A stretch of DNA of 64,000 nucleotides from Tateyamaria sp. Alg231-49 (GTDB lineage Bacteria > Pseudomonadota > Alphaproteobacteria > Rhodobacterales > Rhodobacteraceae): positions 208,280-272,279 of the forward strand of contig NZ_FRFA01000006.1 in NCBI RefSeq assembly GCF_900143535.1, written 5' to 3'. The notes below the pieces were generated by a model. It ran no database searches and was not told the origin of the DNA. It saw only the letters and a list, made by a program, of their open reading frames with translations. Of the stretch, positions 10,262 through 19,897 are shown in pieces; the stretch's first letter is position 1; each line of letters starts with the position of its first letter. Made by a program: the position numbers and the translations under genes.

Positions 10262-10575
10262 AAGGCGGGGCTGACGTCAGACTGCCTTTGAACGGTCAGG
10301 GCGCGGTTCCCCATCGCCGCCTTGGGCCCATTCTGCGACCAAAAGGAGCGCGCTTGCGCGCGCACGACATGTTTTATGCGCTCTGACTTCTGCCTCACCA
10401 AGACAGATATCTGTCCCGCATCCGGCCCCGCCTGCGCCTTGCCTGACAGAAGGCCGCCCCCCGCCCAAGTAAAATAGCCGTATCCCCGCAAGCGGGGCCC
10501 CTCGGCGATTTTTCTTGGCCGGGCGCCCTCCATCTGTCCGTTCAGGTTCAGGCGGCGCCGGCTCCGAGACAGAGA
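10262..10575. other. Convergent intergenic region with three palindromes; no gene seen
   Basis: This 314-bp gap lies between the 3' ends of murD (+) and the flavoprotein gene (-). It contains GCGCGC-TT-GCGCGC near 10350, the perfect 14-bp palindrome GACAGATATCTGTC at 10402-10415, and CCCCGC-AA-GCGGGG at 10484-10497. Clustered palindromes fit bidirectional termination or a remnant of a dispersed intergenic repeat. Reading frames here have no family resemblance. Confidence 0.5.
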
Positions 10576-11751
10576 TCAGCCCTGGAGCGCGCGGGCGCTG
10601 GCCATGGCCGAGGACCACGCCCATTGGAAATTGTATCCCCCCAGCCAGCCGGTGACATCCACCGCTTCTCCGATGAAATAGAGCCCCGGTGTGGATTTGG
10701 ATTCCATGGTTTTGGAGTTGAGCGTGGCGGTGTCGATGCCGCCCCGCGTCACTTCGGCGGTGCGGTAGCCTTCGGTGCCGCTGGGCGTGAGGCTCCATGC
10801 GCTGAGGCTGTTTGTGATCTGAGCGATGCGGGTGTCGGAGGCATCGCCGAGCCGGCCTTGGAGGTCGTGTTCGCCGCTGAGGTGTTCGACAAGCCGTGCA
10901 GGCAAGTGCCGCGCGAGTTCGGTTGTCAGGGCCTTTTTGCCGTCTGTTGTTCGTTTGTCTTTGAGCACCTGCGCGAGGTCTGTGTTTGGGCAGAGGTTCA
11001 CGGTGATTGCCTCGCCTGCGTGCCAATAGTTGGACGCTTGCAGCACCGCCGGGCCAGAAAGACCACGGTGGGTGAAAAGGAGTGCCTCGTCAAAGGCCGG
11101 GCCGTTGGCCTGCACCCGGGCCGGGCAGGCGACGCCGGAGATTGCGGCAAAGCGGCGGTCGGGGAAGGTGAAGGGGACGAGGGCGGCCTCGGTCTCGGTC
11201 ACGCGGTGCCCGAACTGTCGTGCGATGTCGTAGGCAAAGCCTGTTGCCCCCATTTTCGGGATCGATTTGCCGCCGCTTGCGATCACGGCCCGTTTGGCGG
11301 TGATGTGCTGTGTGTGTCCGTCTTTGACCAGCGTTGCTTTGAACCCATCCGGGGATTTGGCGAAATGGCTGACTTCGGTTTGCAGGTGCAGATCGACGCC
11401 TGCGTCTTGCATGAGCTTGCGCAGCATCGCCACGATGTCTTTGGCGGACACATCGCAAAACAGCTGCCCCAGCGTCTTTTCATGCCATGCGATACCATGC
11501 TGATCGACCAATGCGATGAAGTCCCATTGGGTGTAGCGCGCCAGTGCTGATTTAACGAAATGTGGGTTTTCGCTGATGAAGGCCTGTGGGTCGCAGTACA
11601 TGTTTGTGAAGTTGCAGCGCCCGCCGCCTGAAATGCGGATCTTTTCCCCCGGTGCGCGCGCGTGGTCGACCACCAGCACGCGCCCCCCCGCATGGGCGGC
11701 ACACATCATGCCTGCCGCACCGGCTCCGATAACTAATGTGTCGTAATCCAT
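10576..11751 (-). CDS. HI0933/BaiN-type NAD(P)/FAD-dependent oxidoreductase
   Basis: The 391-aa protein begins with a dinucleotide-binding Rossmann motif (VIGAGAAGMMCA, residues about 7-18), followed by KIRISGGGRCNFTN, the marker of the HI0933-like (YhiN/BaiN) flavoprotein family. The C terminus has the typical GLYFIGEAVDVTGWLGGYN FAD-binding signature. Substrate cannot be told from sequence; family members are annotated as putative reductases. It is transcribed against the surrounding dcw cluster. Confidence 0.9.
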   Translation of the reverse strand: MDYDTLVIGAGAAGMMCAAHAGGRVLVVDHARAPGEKIRISGGGRCNFTNMYCDPQAFISENPHFVKSALARYTQWDFIALVDQHGIAWHEKTLGQLFCDVSAKDIVAMLRKLMQDAGVDLHLQTEVSHFAKSPDGFKATLVKDGHTQHITAKRAVIASGGKSIPKMGATGFAYDIARQFGHRVTETEAALVPFTFPDRRFAAISGVACPARVQANGPAFDEALLFTHRGLSGPAVLQASNYWHAGEAITVNLCPNTDLAQVLKDKRTTDGKKALTTELARHLPARLVEHLSGEHDLQGRLGDASDTRIAQITNSLSAWSLTPSGTEGYRTAEVTRGGIDTATLNSKTMESKSTPGLYFIGEAVDVTGWLGGYNFQWAWSSAMASARALQG

Positions 11752-11861
11752 GACGCCCCCGTGCAGGAATGCACAGTTTGGGTCAAGGGTCGGACCTTGC
11801 CCACGCTGTCTGCAACCATAGTTCAGACGTAAACCTAGTCAAAAGACCTGGAGCCCCCAAA

Positions 11862-12389
11862 ATGATTGCACTGACCGCTGGCACTACGTTCCCCAAAATC
11901 GAAATTTCGCAGTTGGGCGGTGGCACTGTTGTGCTTGGCGCGCCACGGAGTGGGTACGACTGGCAGTTGGTGGTGATCTATCGCGGTCTGCATTGCCCGC
12001 TTTGTAAAAATTACCTTGCCGAACTCGAAAACATGCAAGCCGCGTTCCATGACATTGGTGTGGATATCGTGATCGCCTCGGGTGATCCGGCAGAAAAGGC
12101 GCAGGCCATGGTTGATGAAAAAGGACTGAGCCTGCCCATGGGATACGATCTGAACATCGAGCAGATGCGTGCTCTGGGTGTCTACATCTCGGACCCGCGC
12201 AGCCCGCAGGAAACTGACCGTCCCTTTGCCGAACCGGGTCTGTTTGTGATCAACGCCGAAGGGTTGATCCAGATGGTCGATGTGTCCAATGCTCCGTTTT
12301 TGCGCCCGGACCTACAGTCGGTGCTGAAGGGGATCGCGTTCATTCGCAACAATGACTATCCGATCCGGGGAACGCACAAGGCGGCGTGA
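11862..12389 (+). CDS. Peroxiredoxin-like (AhpC/TSA) family protein
   Basis: A 175-aa thioredoxin-fold protein. The ATG at 11862 was chosen because the protein then begins with the family's usual N-terminal strand; an upstream GTG would add 31 unlikely residues. RGLHCPLCKNYLAEL (CPLC at about 45-48) sits where peroxiredoxin-like proteins carry the peroxidatic cysteine, and the spacing also resembles a CxxC. GLFVINAEGLIQMVDVS is typical of the C-terminal half. The role is likely peroxide or thiol redox chemistry in the cytoplasm. It is divergent from the flavoprotein gene 110 bp away. Confidence 0.85.
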   Translation: MIALTAGTTFPKIEISQLGGGTVVLGAPRSGYDWQLVVIYRGLHCPLCKNYLAELENMQAAFHDIGVDIVIASGDPAEKAQAMVDEKGLSLPMGYDLNIEQMRALGVYISDPRSPQETDRPFAEPGLFVINAEGLIQMVDVSNAPFLRPDLQSVLKGIAFIRNNDYPIRGTHKAA

Positions 12390-12612
12390 CCTTGAGGCGC
12401 TTGCGATTGCGGCGTCATTTGCCTGAAAAAACAGCAACCCAATCGGCAACTACTTGCCTGCTATTGGTCGCCTCTGGCGGCCAATTTGCCAATGGGCTGC
12501 GCTTTTAGGACACTGGCCATATTTAATGGCGCTGCACTGTTTTTTCGTGCGGTTTTCCCGATGTTGTACTGTTGGGCAAACTGATTGCGCTGCATTCAAT
12601 GGAGGCTTTGCA

Positions 12613-13236
12613 ATGCCCGCAACTCTTAAAGTGACCCCGACAAAATACAGAAATTACAAGGTTTCAGGTGACGACCTGATGGCGATCCTGAAAAACATGA
12701 AGAAGAAGGGCCCGAAGGACCCCAATGACGGAAAGCGCGTCGCGGCACTGACGTCCACAACGCTTGATGTGAGTGCCGCTGTGTCGAGCGCCCGGTTTGA
12801 GGGGGACGGTAACATTGTCACCTTGAGGGATGGAAAGTTCGAGGCGAAGGCAAAGATCAAGTCGATGGCAGTCGCGTATTCCAGCGAAACCCTTTTGCCT
12901 GAGGTCGGCGCCAACAACCTTTCAGTGCGGGCATGGATCGAATGGGCTCGGTTCAAGTTGAAGCTTGGCATTCACGAGAACGAGCATGTCAAAAAGGCCA
13001 AAAGTGACGCCGTCACGATCGTTGCAGATATCAGTGCAATGCGTGGCGTTGGTGTTGATGCCGACAAAGGCAAGGCCGCTTTGGCAGCAGCAGGAGATCT
13101 GCAAAAGCAGATCGTCAAGAAGTACAACGCCAAGACGCTGGAAAAGCGTTTCAATGCGATCCACAAAAAGTTGGACAAGCCGAAGAAAAAGGGGCGCCCA
13201 GGGCACGGTCCGGTCCTTGATGCGACCATCAAGTAA
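12613..13236 (+). CDS. DUF922-type putative Zn-dependent protease
   Basis: The start at ATG 12613 is chosen for the ggagg 7 nt upstream, giving 207 aa. The N-terminal YKVSGDDLMAIL segment followed by a Gly-Pro turn, and the HENEH motif at about 121-125 (a form of HExxH) in a long helix, match the DUF922 group of predicted Zn-dependent proteases. Family members are usually secreted, but no signal peptide is visible here. The protein is very Lys- and Ala-rich with a basic C terminus. It sits alone between the peroxiredoxin-like gene and ftsW, inside the dcw cluster insertion. Confidence 0.65.
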   Translation: MPATLKVTPTKYRNYKVSGDDLMAILKNMKKKGPKDPNDGKRVAALTSTTLDVSAAVSSARFEGDGNIVTLRDGKFEAKAKIKSMAVAYSSETLLPEVGANNLSVRAWIEWARFKLKLGIHENEHVKKAKSDAVTIVADISAMRGVGVDADKGKAALAAAGDLQKQIVKKYNAKTLEKRFNAIHKKLDKPKKKGRPGHGPVLDATIK

Positions 13237-13526
13237 TCCCCGGCAAGGACCAAAGCCCGGCTGAACCGAAAACGCGCGTGCCATTCCGCAGGTCCGCGCC
13301 CAGCGGTCCGTCGGCTGGTTGCTTATGTTGTCCTCAGTGCTTTTGGCCTGAATGCCTGATCCGAGAAGCCGCATTTGGTGCGGCGCGATCCACAGCGGCG
13401 CTAAATCGCCTGTGGGCCAGCCTCGCAAGGACTAGCCTGCGCGCAATTTTGCAGCTATGGTTAACCACATGCACTTTGGATCAACCGGAGGCATTGAGGC
13501 AGATATAGGCAACAAGGCGGCAGATC

Positions 13527-14806: not shown

Positions 14807-15900
14807 GCCAACCTTTGCTTCTCATCGCGGCGGGTGGCACGGGCGGGCATATGTTCCCTGCGCAAGCTTTGGCCGAGGCGATGTTGCAGCGTGGCTGGCG
14901 CGTCAAGCTCAGCACCGATGCGCGCGGTGCGCGCTACACCGGTGGATTTCCACACACCACACAGATTGAGCAGATCTCGTCTGCGACATTTGCCCGTGGC
15001 GGTCCAATTGCCAAACTGGCGGTCCCGTTTCGCATTGCCGCTGGTGTGTTCAGCGCAAGCCTGAAAATGCTGCGCGACAAGCCCGCTGTTGTTGTCGGCT
15101 TTGGCGGTTATCCGACAATTCCGGCGATGGTCGCAGCCACGTTGCTGCGTCTGCCACGCATGATCCATGAGCAAAACGGCGTTCTGGGGCGGGTGAACCA
15201 TTTGCTTACCAAGCGGGTCAATGCGGTGGCTTGCGGGACGTGGCCGACGGACCTGCCTGAAGGTGTTGAAGGCATTCATGTCGGCAACCCGGTGCGCGCT
15301 GCGGTGTTGGAGCGCGAAGCTGCGTCTTACATTCCACCTGGCGATTATCCGATAGAAATTCTGGTGATTGGTGGGTCTCAGGGCGCACGTATTCTGTCTG
15401 ACGTGATACCGCCTGCGATTGCCAGCCTGCCAATCGCGCGTTTGAAGAACCTGCGTGTCAGCCATCAGGCGCGTGGTGAGGATGAAGACCGCGTGCGCGC
15501 CTTTTATGAAGACCACGGCATCGCCGCAGATGTACAGCCATTCTTTACGGATGTGCCTCGCAGGATGAGCGAGGCGCAGTTGATCATTTCGCGTGCGGGC
15601 GCTTCGTCTGTTGCCGATATTTCGGTCATTGGGCGCCCGTCGATCCTGATCCCCTATGCCGCGGCAACGGGGGATCACCAAACCGCCAATGCGCGCGGGC
15701 TGGTAGAGGCCGGGGCCGCCATTCTGATCCCTGAAAGCAAGTTGACCGTTGAAGCGATGGCTGAGCAGATCAGCGCTGTCCTTGATACGCCCGACGCTGC
15801 CTCTGAGATGTCACGTGCGGCCACCACCTTTGGCAAGCCGGACGCAACAGAAAACCTTGTTCACCTTGTAGAAACCCTCGCACAGAAAGGGACACCATGA
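14803..15900 (+). CDS. murG: UDP-GlcNAc--lipid I N-acetylglucosaminyltransferase MurG
   Basis: MurG converts lipid I to lipid II on the cytoplasmic face of the inner membrane. With the ATG at 14803 the protein is 365 aa and starts conventionally, with [10 protein letters not shown] at about residues 11-20. Other family segments are [24 protein letters not shown] (glycine-rich UDP-GlcNAc side) and [11 protein letters not shown]. Its stop overlaps murC as ATGA. Confidence 0.97.
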
Positions 15901-17303
15901 ACGCCGCAACCAAACTGCCCGGAGACGTGGGCGCAATTCATTTCGTTGGTATCGGCGGGATCGGGATGTCGGGCATTGCTGAGGTGCTGTTGAACCACGG
16001 CTATGTCGTTCAGGGTTCGGATTTGAAGGCCTCCAAGATCACGGAGCGCCTTGCCGAACTGGGTGCACAGATATTTGTTGGCCAAAACGCCAGCAATATT
16101 GATAACGCCGAGGTTGTTGTGATCTCTTCTGCGATCAAGCCGGGCAACGCCGAGCTGGATGCCGCCCGCGCGCGCGGCCTGCCCATTGTGCGTCGCGCCG
16201 AGATGCTGGCCGAGTTGATGCGTCTGAAATCCAACATTGCGATTGCGGGCACGCATGGCAAAACCACCACCACCACGATGGTTGCGGCCTTGCTGGACGA
16301 GGGCGATTTTGACCCCACTGTCGTGAACGGAGGCATTATCCACGCCTATGGTTCGAACGCCCGCAAGGGCGAGGGCGAATGGATGGTTGTTGAGGCCGAT
16401 GAGAGCGACGGGACCTTCAATCGGTTGCCCGCCACCATCGCCATCGTCACCAACATCGACCCCGAACATATGGAACATTGGGGGACCGAAGAGGCCCTGC
16501 ATCAGGGCTTTTATGAGTTTGTGTCCAACATCCCGTTCTACGGGCTGGCTGTGTGCTGCACGGATGATCCGGATGTTCAGGCGTTGGTGGGCAAGATCAC
16601 CGATCGCCGGGTGATTACCTATGGCTTTAACGCGCAGGCGGATGTGCGTGCCGTGAACCTGACTTACAAAAACGGTGTGGCCCATTTCGATGTGGCGCTG
16701 CAATCAGAGGACAAACTCATCGAGGGCTGCTCGTTGCCGATGCCGGGCGATCACAACGTGTCCAACGCCCTGAGCGCCATTGCTGTGGCGCGCCATTTGG
16801 GCATGAAGGGCGACCAGATACGGACCGCGCTGGCCAATTTCGGTGGCGTTAATCGCCGCTTTACCCGCGTAGGTGAAATTGAGGGGGTGACCATTATCGA
16901 TGACTATGGTCACCACCCAACTGAAATTGCTGCCGTCCTGAAGGCGGCCCGCCAAGCCACCGAAGGACGCGTGATCGCCGTGCACCAGCCGCACCGCTAT
17001 ACCCGCCTGCATCACCATTTTGAGGATTTCTGTTCCTGCTTTAACGATGCCGACGTGGTCGGGATCACTGACATTTTCGCTGCCGGCGAGGATCCGATCG
17101 AAGGGGCCAGCCGCGATGACCTGGTCGCAGGTCTTATTCGCCACGGTCACCGCCATGCGCGTTCTGTAATGAGCGAGGATGATCTGGAGCGCCTCGTGCG
17201 CGAACAGGCGCGTCCCGGTGACATGGTGGTCTGCCTTGGGGCAGGGACGATTTCCGCTTGGGCAAACGGGTTGCCGGGGCGATTGCAAAAGGGAGCCGCG
17301 TAA
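15897..17303 (+). CDS. murC: UDP-N-acetylmuramate--L-alanine ligase MurC
   Basis: MurC catalyses the first amino-acid addition to UDP-MurNAc. The 468-aa protein has the N-terminal Rossmann motif [16 protein letters not shown], the ATP loop GTHGKTTTT at about 118-126, [20 protein letters not shown] and [10 protein letters not shown], all standard for MurC. A set of small membrane-protein genes begins 6 bp after its stop. Confidence 0.97.
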
Positions 17304-17309
17304 GAGCGC

Positions 17310-17630
17310 ATGGAGGCCAACCTGTTCAGTGTGACTGTGATCGGTGTGCCGCTTTTGGCGGCCCCGGCGGCGTTGATCTGGGGATTGCGCAGGACTTTGA
17401 TTGTCGTCTTGGGCATCTGCGCGCTGATGCTGGTGGCTCCTTATGTCTCTTTTGGCGTCTGGGCTTTGATCGAGGGCGAGGACCTCTGGACAACATTGCA
17501 AGCTGTCGCGGTGTCGTTCCCGGCGGCTGCGGTCATTGTCGGCTGGATGCTGGTGTGGACGGTGGCGTATGGCGCGATTGCTGCAGGAATACGACTGGGG
17601 TGGTTCTATTTGAGGAGGGAAAGAGCATGA
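17310..17630 (+). CDS. Small unknown membrane protein downstream of murC
   Basis: This 106-aa protein is largely hydrophobic, with about three membrane segments (roughly residues 6-25, 27-50 and 64-97) and a basic C-terminal tail. I do not recognise a family. It starts 6 bp after murC and its stop overlaps the next gene's ATG as ATGA, placing it in the murC-murB transcription unit. Confidence 0.75.
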   Translation: MEANLFSVTVIGVPLLAAPAALIWGLRRTLIVVLGICALMLVAPYVSFGVWALIEGEDLWTTLQAVAVSFPAAAVIVGWMLVWTVAYGAIAAGIRLGWFYLRRERA

Positions 17631-17902
17631 TGGTTGTCTGTCTGGGTATACTTGCCTTGTCACTTGCCTTTGGCGTGGCGTGGATCAACACGCGTATTGC
17701 GGGGCTGTTCTGGGTCTCGGCCAATTTTCTGGGCTATCAGTGGATGGTTGAGGCGACACGACTGGATCCGAACATGATGAAAATGGCAGCGAACTTTTCG
17801 CTGGTTTTGTTGACCGTCTATCTGTCGGTCATGGCACTTTCGGGTATCGGAGCGGCGCATCTGGCCAAATCCAAGCGCCGCGCCCAACTGGCTACAACAT
17901 GA
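17627..17902 (+). CDS. Small unknown membrane protein
   Basis: This 91-aa product has a hydrophobic N terminus (about residues 1-22), a second hydrophobic segment around 27-43 and a third around 58-78, then a basic tail. The ATG at 17627 overlaps the preceding stop and is preceded by gaggagg. No family was recognised. Confidence 0.75.
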   Translation: MMVVCLGILALSLAFGVAWINTRIAGLFWVSANFLGYQWMVEATRLDPNMMKMAANFSLVLLTVYLSVMALSGIGAAHLAKSKRRAQLATT

Positions 17903-17966
17903 CAAACCTGAAATGGCTGAGTGCGAACGGCCTGCATTCGAAATGTATTTTTAGAGAGTTGTCCCG

Positions 17967-18230
17967 ATGACACTTGCGCTGGCCTGCATCGCTTGGGTTT
18001 TTGCCGCGACGGCCGTGGCGATGTTGCCTATGCGCCATCAGTACATTCCCGGCGTGACTCTTTTGCTTGCGTCCCCTGTGCTGATCTTGTGGATCGGTAT
18101 TGCAGTGGCGTGGTGGGCCGGTGTTCTTGCCTTGTGCGCGTTCGTGTCTATGTTTCGCAACCCGCTGCGCTATTTCTGGGCAAAGGCGCGCGGGCAAAAT
18201 CCACAGCTTCCGCCGGAGTTGCGGTCATGA
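17967..18230 (+). CDS. DUF2484 family membrane protein, copy 1
   Basis: The 87-aa protein has three hydrophobic stretches and the pattern ACIAWVFAATAVAMLPMRHQ near the N terminus. With the C-terminal FRNPLRYFWAKARG it resembles DUF2484, a family of unknown function found in Rhodobacteraceae next to murC/murB. Its TGA overlaps the next DUF2484 gene's ATG as ATGA. Confidence 0.8.
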   Translation: MTLALACIAWVFAATAVAMLPMRHQYIPGVTLLLASPVLILWIGIAVAWWAGVLALCAFVSMFRNPLRYFWAKARGQNPQLPPELRS

Positions 18231-18475
18231 GTCTTTCGATCATCCTTGCCTGTCTTTGGGCGCTGGCCGCCAACGTGATCGCGATGTTGCCGAGCCGTGA
18301 TCAACATTGGACCAACGCCTATGGCCTGATCGCCATTGGCATCCCGATCCTTGGTTTTGTCACGTGGCAACATGGGCCGTGGGTGGGTCTGCTGCTGCTG
18401 GCAGCGGGCATGAGCGTGCTGCGCTGGCCCGTCATTTACCTGAGCCGCTGGATCAAGGCGCGGATCGTGCGATGA
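18227..18475 (+). CDS. DUF2484 family membrane protein, copy 2
   Basis: This 82-aa protein is a clear paralogue of the gene before it: LACLWALAANVIAMLPSRDQ lines up with the equivalent segment there, and both end in a basic helix after an arginine-rich turn. Three membrane segments are likely. ATGA overlaps join it to both neighbours. Its function is unknown. Confidence 0.8.
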   Translation: MSLSIILACLWALAANVIAMLPSRDQHWTNAYGLIAIGIPILGFVTWQHGPWVGLLLLAAGMSVLRWPVIYLSRWIKARIVR

Positions 18476-18741
18476 TACCGATAGCATTGGCAACGCTGCT
18501 GGTTGGGATTGTCGCCGGATTTGCGCTGGCCCGCCGGTTCATGCTCCGTATCTTGGTGTCACTGGTTCTGGGGTTGATCGGGCTTATTGTGTTGGTGTCG
18601 TGGGCGCCGGCAGAGGCATTGCCCGGGGACGGGTACGCCATGGTCGTTGCCGCGTACCTGATTGCGCCGCCCCTGGCTGCGGGCCTGTTTGGTGGAGCGG
18701 TGTTTGCATGGCTTTTCAGAAATAGAACCAAGACGGCCTGA
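18472..18741 (+). CDS. Small unknown membrane protein
   Basis: The 89-aa product has three hydrophobic segments (about residues 2-19, 24-43 and 55-83) and short basic ends. Its ATG lies inside the preceding gene's stop (ATGA). No family was recognised. It belongs to the same run of coupled small membrane proteins upstream of murB. Confidence 0.75.
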   Translation: MIPIALATLLVGIVAGFALARRFMLRILVSLVLGLIGLIVLVSWAPAEALPGDGYAMVVAAYLIAPPLAAGLFGGAVFAWLFRNRTKTA

Positions 18742-18787
18742 GTTGCAGCAGCGACTGCGGTGCCGCCACCCAAGAAAGCACGTTTTG

Positions 18788-18965
18788 ATGTCCTCTTACA
18801 TTACCTACGTCCTGAGCGCGGCCATCGCATGCTTTGGGATTGCGCGCGCGCGCTTTTGGCTGGACTGGAGCCTTTGTATTGGCGGCCATTGTCGGCGCAA
18901 CAGCTGTTGCCAAAAGGCGCGCAGCCCTGCAAAGCGCGGGTTCAATGCCTCTTAAGAGCGGATGA
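18788..18965 (+). pseudogene. Small two-segment membrane protein with apparent +1 frameshift before murB
   Basis: From ATG 18788 one frame encodes a plausible first membrane segment (YITYVLSAAIACFGIARAR) and then turns into cysteine- and arginine-rich nonsense. Shifting by one base at the TTTT run (18854-18857), just after an alternating GC tract, gives a second membrane segment (GAFVLAAIVGATAVAKRRAA) and a natural end. The TGA at 18963-18965 overlaps the murB ATG at 18962 as ATGA, like the junctions before it. Removing one T would give an intact protein of about 58 aa. A sequencing error, a mutation or programmed slippage would all fit. Confidence 0.55.
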
Positions 18966-19897
18966 TCGTGATGAACGGCACAGGTATTCCAGATGTGCGC
19001 GGCAGTCTGACTGCACACAAAGACCTTTCGACCCTCACGTGGCTGCGCGTTGGTGGCCCTGCGGATTGGCTGTTGCAACCGGCCGACGTCCAAGACCTGT
19101 CGGACTTTCTGAAAGCGCTGGGCCTGGACGTGCCCGTGTTTCCGATGGGGGTGGGCAGCAACCTGATCGTGCGCGACGGAGGTTTGCGCGCTGTGGTGGT
19201 CCGGCTGGGGCGCGGGTTTAACGAGATCAAGGTGGACGGTGACATGGTCACCGCGGGGGCGGCTGCATTGGATGCCCATGTGGCGCGTCGTGCGGCGGAC
19301 GCGGGCGTCGATCTTACGTTTTTGCGCACAATCCCCGGCACACTTGGCGGTGCGGTGCGCATGAACGCCGGGTGCTACGGCAGTTATACGGCCGATGTTT
19401 TCCATTCGGCGCAGGTGGTGTTGCGCGACGGGACCATCACGACACTGGCCCCCGCAGATATGAATTTTCGCTATCGGCAAAGCGATTTGCCGACAGGCGC
19501 GGTGTTGACCTCAGTAACCTTACGCGCGCCTTTGGGCGATCCGGCACACCTGAATGCCCGGATGGCGGATCAACTGGCCAAGCGGGATGCGACCCAGCCG
19601 ACCAAGGACCGAAGTGCAGGATCAACCTTTCGCAATCCGGCGGGGTTTTCATCGACAGGGCGTGCTGACGATGTCCATGATCTGAAGGCATGGAAGGTCA
19701 TTGATGATGCAGGCATGCGGGGCGCGACCCGTGGTGGCGCACAAATGAGCGAAAAACACTCCAACTTCCTCATCAACACTGGCGGGGCCAGTGCTGCCGA
19801 CCTTGAAGGATTAGGGGAGGAAGTGCGAAAAAAGGTTTACGATTCAAGCGGTATCACGCTAGAATGGGAAATCATGCGGATCGGCGAACCGGGCTAG
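18962..19897 (+). CDS. murB: UDP-N-acetylenolpyruvoylglucosamine reductase MurB
   Basis: MurB is the FAD- and NADPH-dependent reductase that makes UDP-MurNAc. The 311-aa protein has [23 protein letters not shown] and [17 protein letters not shown] in the FAD domain, then AGSTFRNP with the proton-donor serine and the conserved Glu in SEKHSNFL. Start 18962 is favoured because it overlaps the upstream stop as ATGA; ATG 18971 is the alternative. Confidence 0.96.

What the first reader, a model, noticed from the sequence alone, without database searches (positions are those of the whole stretch)
17310..18965. Cassette of six small membrane proteins inserted between murC and murB
Six consecutive genes of about 58-106 codons, all membrane proteins, mostly linked by ATGA overlaps, sit in the core cell-wall operon. 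None has a known function. Their coupling to murC and murB suggests a role at the membrane in precursor synthesis or divisome assembly. This is the best candidate for an undescribed system in the window.
Basis: partly seen in the sequence, partly recalled or inferred. Interest (0 to 1): 0.7.

Follow-up and report, generated by a model that had tools for sequence, protein, structure and literature searches.

The report
Membrane gene module beside murB
Between two cell-wall synthesis genes of a marine Tateyamaria bacterium sit five intact small genes predicted to encode membrane proteins; two of them recur at this place in most relatives sampled and likely act as a membrane adaptor for the wall-building machinery, a role that is inferred and untested.

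Summary
The observation largely holds, with one correction: five intact small genes (w1-w5), not six, lie between murC and murB. The "sixth" is a frame-broken remnant of a gene that has 97 codons in the nearest relative examined. Three of the five internal junctions are 4-base overlaps.

w3 and w4 are two distinct members of Pfam DUF2484 (function unknown), found in 268 of 292 genomes drawn from the order and in none of the 380 other genomes of a class draw outside the family. The pair has a fixed order, A then B, and in the genus A and B evolve about as slowly as murB. Where murC and murB have come apart, DUF2484 lies directly before murB (3 of 3 genomes that hold it). w5 belongs to a fast-evolving three-helix family that recurs just before murB; w1 and w2 are nearly confined to Tateyamaria and are swapped or replaced in sister species. 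In three relatives murC abuts murB, so the module can be lost.

Best reading: a lineage-specific membrane accessory module of the murB-ddl-ftsQAZ half of the dcw operon, with DUF2484 likely a docking adaptor. Anatomy is shown; partner and mechanism are inferred. My co-evolution test named no partner consistently.

The parts
17310..17630 (+). w1, 106 aa, predicted 3 membrane segments; nearly confined to Tateyamaria
   Evidence: 12 database proteins; cluster of 5 loci, one of them (L060) outside the genus; no Pfam, NCBIfam or PHROG family
17627..17902 (+). w2, 91 aa, predicted membrane protein; found in window, L202 and L211, in L211 before w1 instead of after it
17967..18230 (+). w3, 87 aa, DUF2484 subtype A
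   Evidence: PF10658 at 40.3 bits, cut-off 25; subtype motif and order
18227..18475 (+). w4, 82 aa, DUF2484 subtype B, the most widely kept gene of the module
   Evidence: PF10658 at 115.7 bits, cut-off 25; model pLDDT 87.0
18472..18741 (+). w5, 89 aa, member of a fast-evolving three-helix family that recurs before murB
   Evidence: model pLDDT 90.5
18788..18955 (+). w6, frame-broken remnant of a 97-aa small membrane gene, not an intact gene
15897..17303 (+). murC, upstream flank
   Evidence: TIGR01082 524.6 bits
18962..19897 (+). murB, downstream flank, the gene the module stays with
   Evidence: NF010480 358.7 bits; linkage

Best explanation
The five intact small genes between murC and murB form a lineage-specific accessory module of the cell-wall operon whose conserved core, an ordered pair of DUF2484 paralogues (A then B), is predicted to sit in the inner membrane and likely acts as a docking adaptor that would hold wall-precursor and division proteins encoded next door together at the membrane. 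Shown: the genes, their order, the near-confinement of DUF2484 to one family and to this locus in the genomes searched, constraint on A and B, linkage to murB rather than murC, and quick turnover of the flanking small genes. Predicted: three membrane helices, N-terminus outside, positively charged tail inside, so that the most conserved polar and aromatic residues of subtype B (Pro22-Ser23, Asp25, His27-Trp28; Arg66-Trp67-Pro68, Tyr71, Arg74-Trp75) would lie at the cytoplasmic face of the membrane. Inferred: that this face binds a partner. The murB-side enzymes and the FtsW/MurG lipid II apparatus are the likeliest partners, and the fast-evolving small proteins (w1, w2, w5) are taken as optional modulators.
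For: DUF2484 in 268 of 292 genomes and 102 of 112 genera of the order draw, 0 of 14 control genomes; in the class draw 5 of 385, all five in the window's own family. In 60 of 60 loci fetched around DUF2484, murC and murB flank it; genome-wide count equals in-locus count in 59 of 60. Order A then B in 79 of 136 loci, B alone in 40, never B before A. Median pN/pS in 19 Tateyamaria loci: A 0.183, B 0.223, murB 0.171, murC 0.093. 153 of 258 gene-gene junctions in the gaps are 4-base overlaps. In the three genomes with DUF2484 among those where murC and murB are separated, DUF2484 precedes murB on the same strand: permease-A-B-murB (G689), A-B-small gene-murB (G690), B-murB (G692). Tail net charge +4.5 (B, 129 sequences) and +4.1 (A, 86), second loop -0.3. 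Invariant or near-invariant residues in B.
Against: Three relatives have murC abutting murB and no DUF2484 detected, so the function is dispensable or replaceable. B has dN/dS 0.227 in the closest pair, against murB 0.084. The distance comparison gave no stable partner: B followed MurB in the named loci (0.324; 0.25 with FtsW added) but not in the second set once FtsW was added (0.03); A and B do not follow each other (partial r -0.23 and -0.06), which does not favour an obligatory A-B complex. The C-terminal helix is not clearly amphipathic (moment 0.15). No fold or sequence relative of known function. No experiment.
Confidence: 0.3

Rival explanations
1. Separate membrane function: DUF2484 serves another inner-membrane process and is merely co-expressed from a strong, growth-linked operon, like the permease genes found in the same gap.
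For: An amino acid permease family sits in the same gap in 32 of 136 loci; the conserved residues do not match any known family.
Against: DUF2484 was not found away from this place in 59 of 60 genomes, and it stays with murB when the operon breaks.
Confidence: 0.25
2. Tolerated insertion site: the murC-murB gap accepts small membrane genes that give little benefit, and the content drifts.
For: Gap contents vary (83 to 4251 bases); ten make-ups of the stretch before DUF2484 in 19 Tateyamaria loci; w6 is decaying; losses occur.
Against: A and B are constrained about like murB; gene order is regular (permease before DUF2484 in 31 of 32, w5 family after it in 45 of 46); 430 of 443 called genes are on the operon's strand. 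This reading fits w1, w2 and w6 better than w3 and w4.
Confidence: 0.2
3. Transcript tether: translating small membrane proteins in mid-operon brings the polycistronic mRNA to the membrane, so that MurB and the following proteins are made there; which membrane protein does it matters little.
For: The small genes are exchangeable but nearly all membrane proteins (65 of 74 other genes of 60-130 aa have two or more hydrophobic segments), same strand, mostly overlapping.
Confidence: 0.1
4. Arms race: the fast-evolving small membrane proteins (w1, w2, w5) shield membrane steps of wall synthesis from phage lysis proteins or wall-directed bacteriocins, with DUF2484 as the conserved part they attach to.
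For: Median genus amino-acid identity 0.42 (w5) and 0.41 (w1) against 0.84 (murB), median pN/pS 0.654 and 0.664; quick exchange of genes.
Against: No PHROG match below E 0.01 for the ten proteins tried; the closest pair has dN/dS well below 1; drift of loosely constrained proteins would look the same. Defence libraries were not searched.
Confidence: 0.1

Closest known systems
Pfam DUF2484 (PF10658)
   Same: w3 and w4 are members by score (40.3 and 115.7 bits, cut-off 25)
   Different: the Pfam entry gives no function; the A/B split, fixed order, place before murB and confinement described here come from this work
[quoted passage not shown]
   Same: standard genes in the standard order around the module
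   Different: in E. coli and Caulobacter murC is followed directly by murB (recalled, not tested here); here a membrane module is inserted
FtsL/FtsB-type small division membrane proteins
   Same: small membrane proteins of a wall operon (recalled comparison)
   Different: those have one membrane segment and a periplasmic coiled coil (recalled); DUF2484 is predicted to have three segments and almost no periplasmic part
Phage holins (e.g. Pfam PF23778)
   Same: a w5 relative, L183, gives a weak match (E 0.0032): small, several helices, basic tail
   Different: 18.1 bits against a cut-off of 32; fixed place in a housekeeping operon

Membership tests
DUF2484 (PF10658) | score above the curated cut-off of 25 bits | tested here: met
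   w4 115.7 bits, w3 40.3 bits
DUF2484 (PF10658) | score above the cut-off for w1, w2, w5, w6 | tested here: not met
   no match for these four
w5 (three-helix) family, defined here | profile-profile similarity beyond reversed controls | tested here: inconclusive
   w5's own cluster joins clusters c8, c9, c12, c15 (best values 93-96, reversed controls at most 6), but w1's and w2's clusters score 6 at best against it; the 97-aa gene behind w6 scores 48
Phage holin (PF23778) | score above cut-off of 32 bits | tested here: not met
   18.1 bits for L183's gene; no holin match for w1, w2, w5 in Pfam or PHROGs
DUF2975 (PF11188) | score above cut-off of 27 bits for the 97-aa gene of L202 | tested here: not met
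   21.2 bits, E 2.9e-4
Mobile gene cassette | copies elsewhere in the genome or outside the lineage | tested here: not met
   DUF2484 in the locus only in 59 of 60 genomes, 0 of 380 outside the family; of 25 w5-family matches in 20 genomes chosen, 2 lie elsewhere (G303, G305)
Peptidoglycan-synthesis accessory protein | physical or genetic interaction with a Mur or Fts protein | not testable with these tools
   only position, linkage and distance comparisons were possible

The most novel reading that the evidence does not exclude
DUF2484-A and -B are an unrecognised, family-wide membrane scaffold of the wall-synthesis and division machinery of Rhodobacteraceae that docks MurB-side enzymes to the FtsW/MurG complex, and the fast-changing small proteins around it are exchangeable regulators or shields shaped by a contest over lipid II.
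Probability: 0.15. Interest if true: 0.75.

Novelty: new variant of a known kind. Interest (0 to 1): 0.48.

Why it matters
The dcw cluster is among the best known bacterial operons, yet in most sampled genomes of a large, mostly marine family it carries two conserved membrane genes of unknown function in a fixed place. If they serve the wall machinery, this would be a lineage-specific component missed because the usual model organisms lack it, and it could be tested by deleting two small genes in ordinary laboratory strains. The locus also shows, inside one operon, a conserved core beside small genes that are exchanged from species to species.

Tried and rejected
Rejected: six intact genes (w6 is broken).

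Rejected as evidence: a MurB-specific co-evolution signal. On 50 named loci B followed MurB (partial r 0.324, 0 of 999 permutations). With automated A/B typing it was 0.302 on 52 named loci, and 0.25 with FtsW added. In 75 other genomes it was 0.248 with four genes, where MurG led with 0.488, and 0.03 once FtsW was added. FtsW was positive for B in both sets (0.19 to 0.49), but FtsW also follows FtsA at r 0.93, so general relatedness may explain it. An A-MurG signal (0.389) fell to 0.150 and 0.166 and to about 0 with FtsW added; A-Ddl appeared in the second set only (0.31).

Led nowhere: solved-structure search by sequence (none; one match at E 0.43); Foldseek of the w4 model (24 matches, best E 5.2). 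The w5 model was not searched. Promoter and terminator scan gave about what shuffles gave. PADLOC was not searched.

Papers: 'DUF2484' and 'PF10658' gave 0 papers each. Passages only were seen of PMC9275681, PMC5513736 and PMC5089854; none of the passages mentions a gene between murC and murB. Searches were seen as listings only. Supplementary tables were not readable.

Rows dropped: of 80 named murC loci, 10 gave no usable murB and were looked at apart; 11 duplicates were removed, leaving 136 loci; 4 of 80 second-set genomes were removed as matching the first set. The second gene caller still missed DUF2484 in L152 and L165, found by profile. Of the 24 genomes without DUF2484, 20 were listed and followed; the other 4 were not.

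Full report
What is there. The window lies in a Tateyamaria genome: the same-genus genome G229 has the same murC-murB gap as the named Tateyamaria locus L127. Between murC (15897-17303) and murB (18962-19897), in an otherwise ordinary dcw operon, five intact small genes w1-w5 follow one another on the + strand. w1/w2, w3/w4 and w4/w5 overlap by four bases. Whether the frame break is real or a sequencing slip cannot be told here; the missing middle does not depend on it.

The core. w3 and w4 both belong to Pfam DUF2484 (40.3 and 115.7 bits against 25). A draw of 292 genomes from the order gave 268 with it, in 102 of 112 genera, and none of 14 control genomes; all genomes listed there are of one GTDB family. 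A class-wide draw of 385 gave 5 hits, all in that family. By profile, 133 of 136 distinct murC-murB gaps hold it (90 two copies, 42 one, 1 three). Sixty of these loci had been picked because they hold it and others by DNA likeness, so the fairer figure is 63 of 66 named loci found through murC. Genome-wide counts equal in-locus counts in 59 of 60 genomes; in the odd one my profile found one copy more in the locus than the Pfam search had.

Two subtypes. Sequences fall into A (P-x-R-x-Q-x-x-P-G ... S-M-F-R-x-P-L) and B (P-S-x-D-x-H-W-x-x-A-Y ... L-R-W-P-x-x-Y-L-x-R-W). Of 136 loci, 79 have A then B, 40 B alone, one A alone, one A-A-B, ten hold a sequence my motif rule could not type, and in five the gene caller had called none. 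No locus shows B before A. In 19 Tateyamaria loci median pN/pS is 0.183 (A, 18 loci) and 0.223 (B), near murB (0.171) and above murC (0.093). In the closest pair alone B has 0.227 and murB 0.084.

The changing neighbours. w5 belongs to a divergent family with a nearly invariant Pro and Gly in the third helix. In loci with DUF2484, its relatives lie after DUF2484 and before murB in 45 of 46 cases, and amino acid permease genes (AA_permease_2) lie before DUF2484 in 31 of 32. Profile comparison joins several small clusters and singletons to the w5 family (values up to 96, reversed controls at most 6), but not those of w1 and w2. Within Tateyamaria the stretch between murC and DUF2484 is empty, or holds w1+w2, w2+w1, w1+c3, c3, c17, c17+c3, c15, or genes unique to one locus, ten make-ups in 19 loci by my clustering. 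w1 has 12 relatives in a database of 5.8 billion proteins; those with a name are Tateyamaria or an unspecified Pseudomonadota MAG. My set adds a more distant one in L060, outside the genus. In two other Tateyamaria assemblies the locus tags of w1 and w5 are 20 apart (ABJ263_14915/14895, ACERZ8_12965/12985), which suggests the same five-gene run.

What DUF2484 follows. In four named loci murC is followed by other genes and no DUF2484 (L141, L167, L168, L188). Three of those genomes hold DUF2484 elsewhere, and in all three it precedes murB on the same strand: permease-A-B-murB in G689, A-B-a 93-aa small membrane gene-murB in G690, B-murB in G692. The fourth, and the genome of L191, have none. 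So the linkage is to murB and the genes behind it, and in G689 the permease went along. Three cases are few, and G689 is a metagenome assembly.

Loss. Of the 24 genomes without DUF2484, the 20 listed were searched together with G297 (a Tateyamaria-group genome without a DNA match). In 18 of these 21 a murC-murB pair could be read: three have the two genes abutting, four keep a w5-type gene (two of them weak, E 3e-6 and 6e-5), two the permease, two the soluble family c4, and seven show none of these in gaps of 102-1142 bases. The module is not indispensable to the family.

Structure. AlphaFold2 gives w4 three helices plus a fourth, C-terminal one (mean pLDDT 87.0, pTM 0.67, 61 sequences) and w5 three helices (90.5, 0.76, 37 sequences). 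The charge pattern puts the tail inside. The C-terminal helix is not clearly amphipathic (moment 0.15, like helix 2). Foldseek gave no PDB match at E <= 0.001 for w4.

Mechanism. A fixed place in the operon, constraint close to that of murB, linkage to murB and a conserved, probably cytoplasmic face speak for a membrane adaptor serving products of this operon. That is inference. I tried to name the partner by comparing evolutionary distances: in 50 named loci B followed MurB (0.324, 0 of 999 permutations), and this stayed at 0.25 with FtsW added (52 loci), but in 75 other genomes it fell to 0.03 with FtsW added, where FtsW led with 0.49 and MurG had 0.24. A and B do not follow each other. The partner stays open among MurB, MurG and FtsW.

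Verdict. No paper in the held library contains 'DUF2484' or 'PF10658'; papers outside it or using other names were not seen.

Noticed in passing
window 10262-13526: About 3.2 kb between murD and ftsW holds further ORFs, among them a long one on the minus strand (10576-11751), so the dcw cluster has a second inserted stretch. The ORFs were not identified.
   Followed up: no
L034:3712-4899 and 31 other loci: An amino acid permease family (AA_permease_2, 110 bits) lies between murC and DUF2484 in 32 of 136 loci; alanine or glutamate supply for MurC/MurD is a guess.
   Followed up: partly
L072:557-2140, L088:4225-5694 and others: A soluble, alanine-rich protein family without a Pfam match (L072) sits in the same gap in 20 of 136 loci by profile, before or after DUF2484.
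   Followed up: partly
P0041, P0051, P0061, P0074, P0105, P0108, P0110, P0117: Database proteins of 95-96 aa of the w5 family are named 'UDP-N-acetylmuramate--alanine ligase' by a source, probably a naming error carried over from the neighbouring murC.
   Followed up: no
G303:C5:25053-25310 and G305:C2:25767-26027: Two same-genus genomes have a second, weaker w5-family match away from the murC-murB locus.
   Followed up: no
G063:C3:223496-224887, G209:C1:12492-13883, G141:C1:4333723-4335111: The murC match of three DUF2484-less genomes contains one in-frame stop (TAG, TAG, TGA); whether it falls at the end of the gene was not checked.
   Followed up: no
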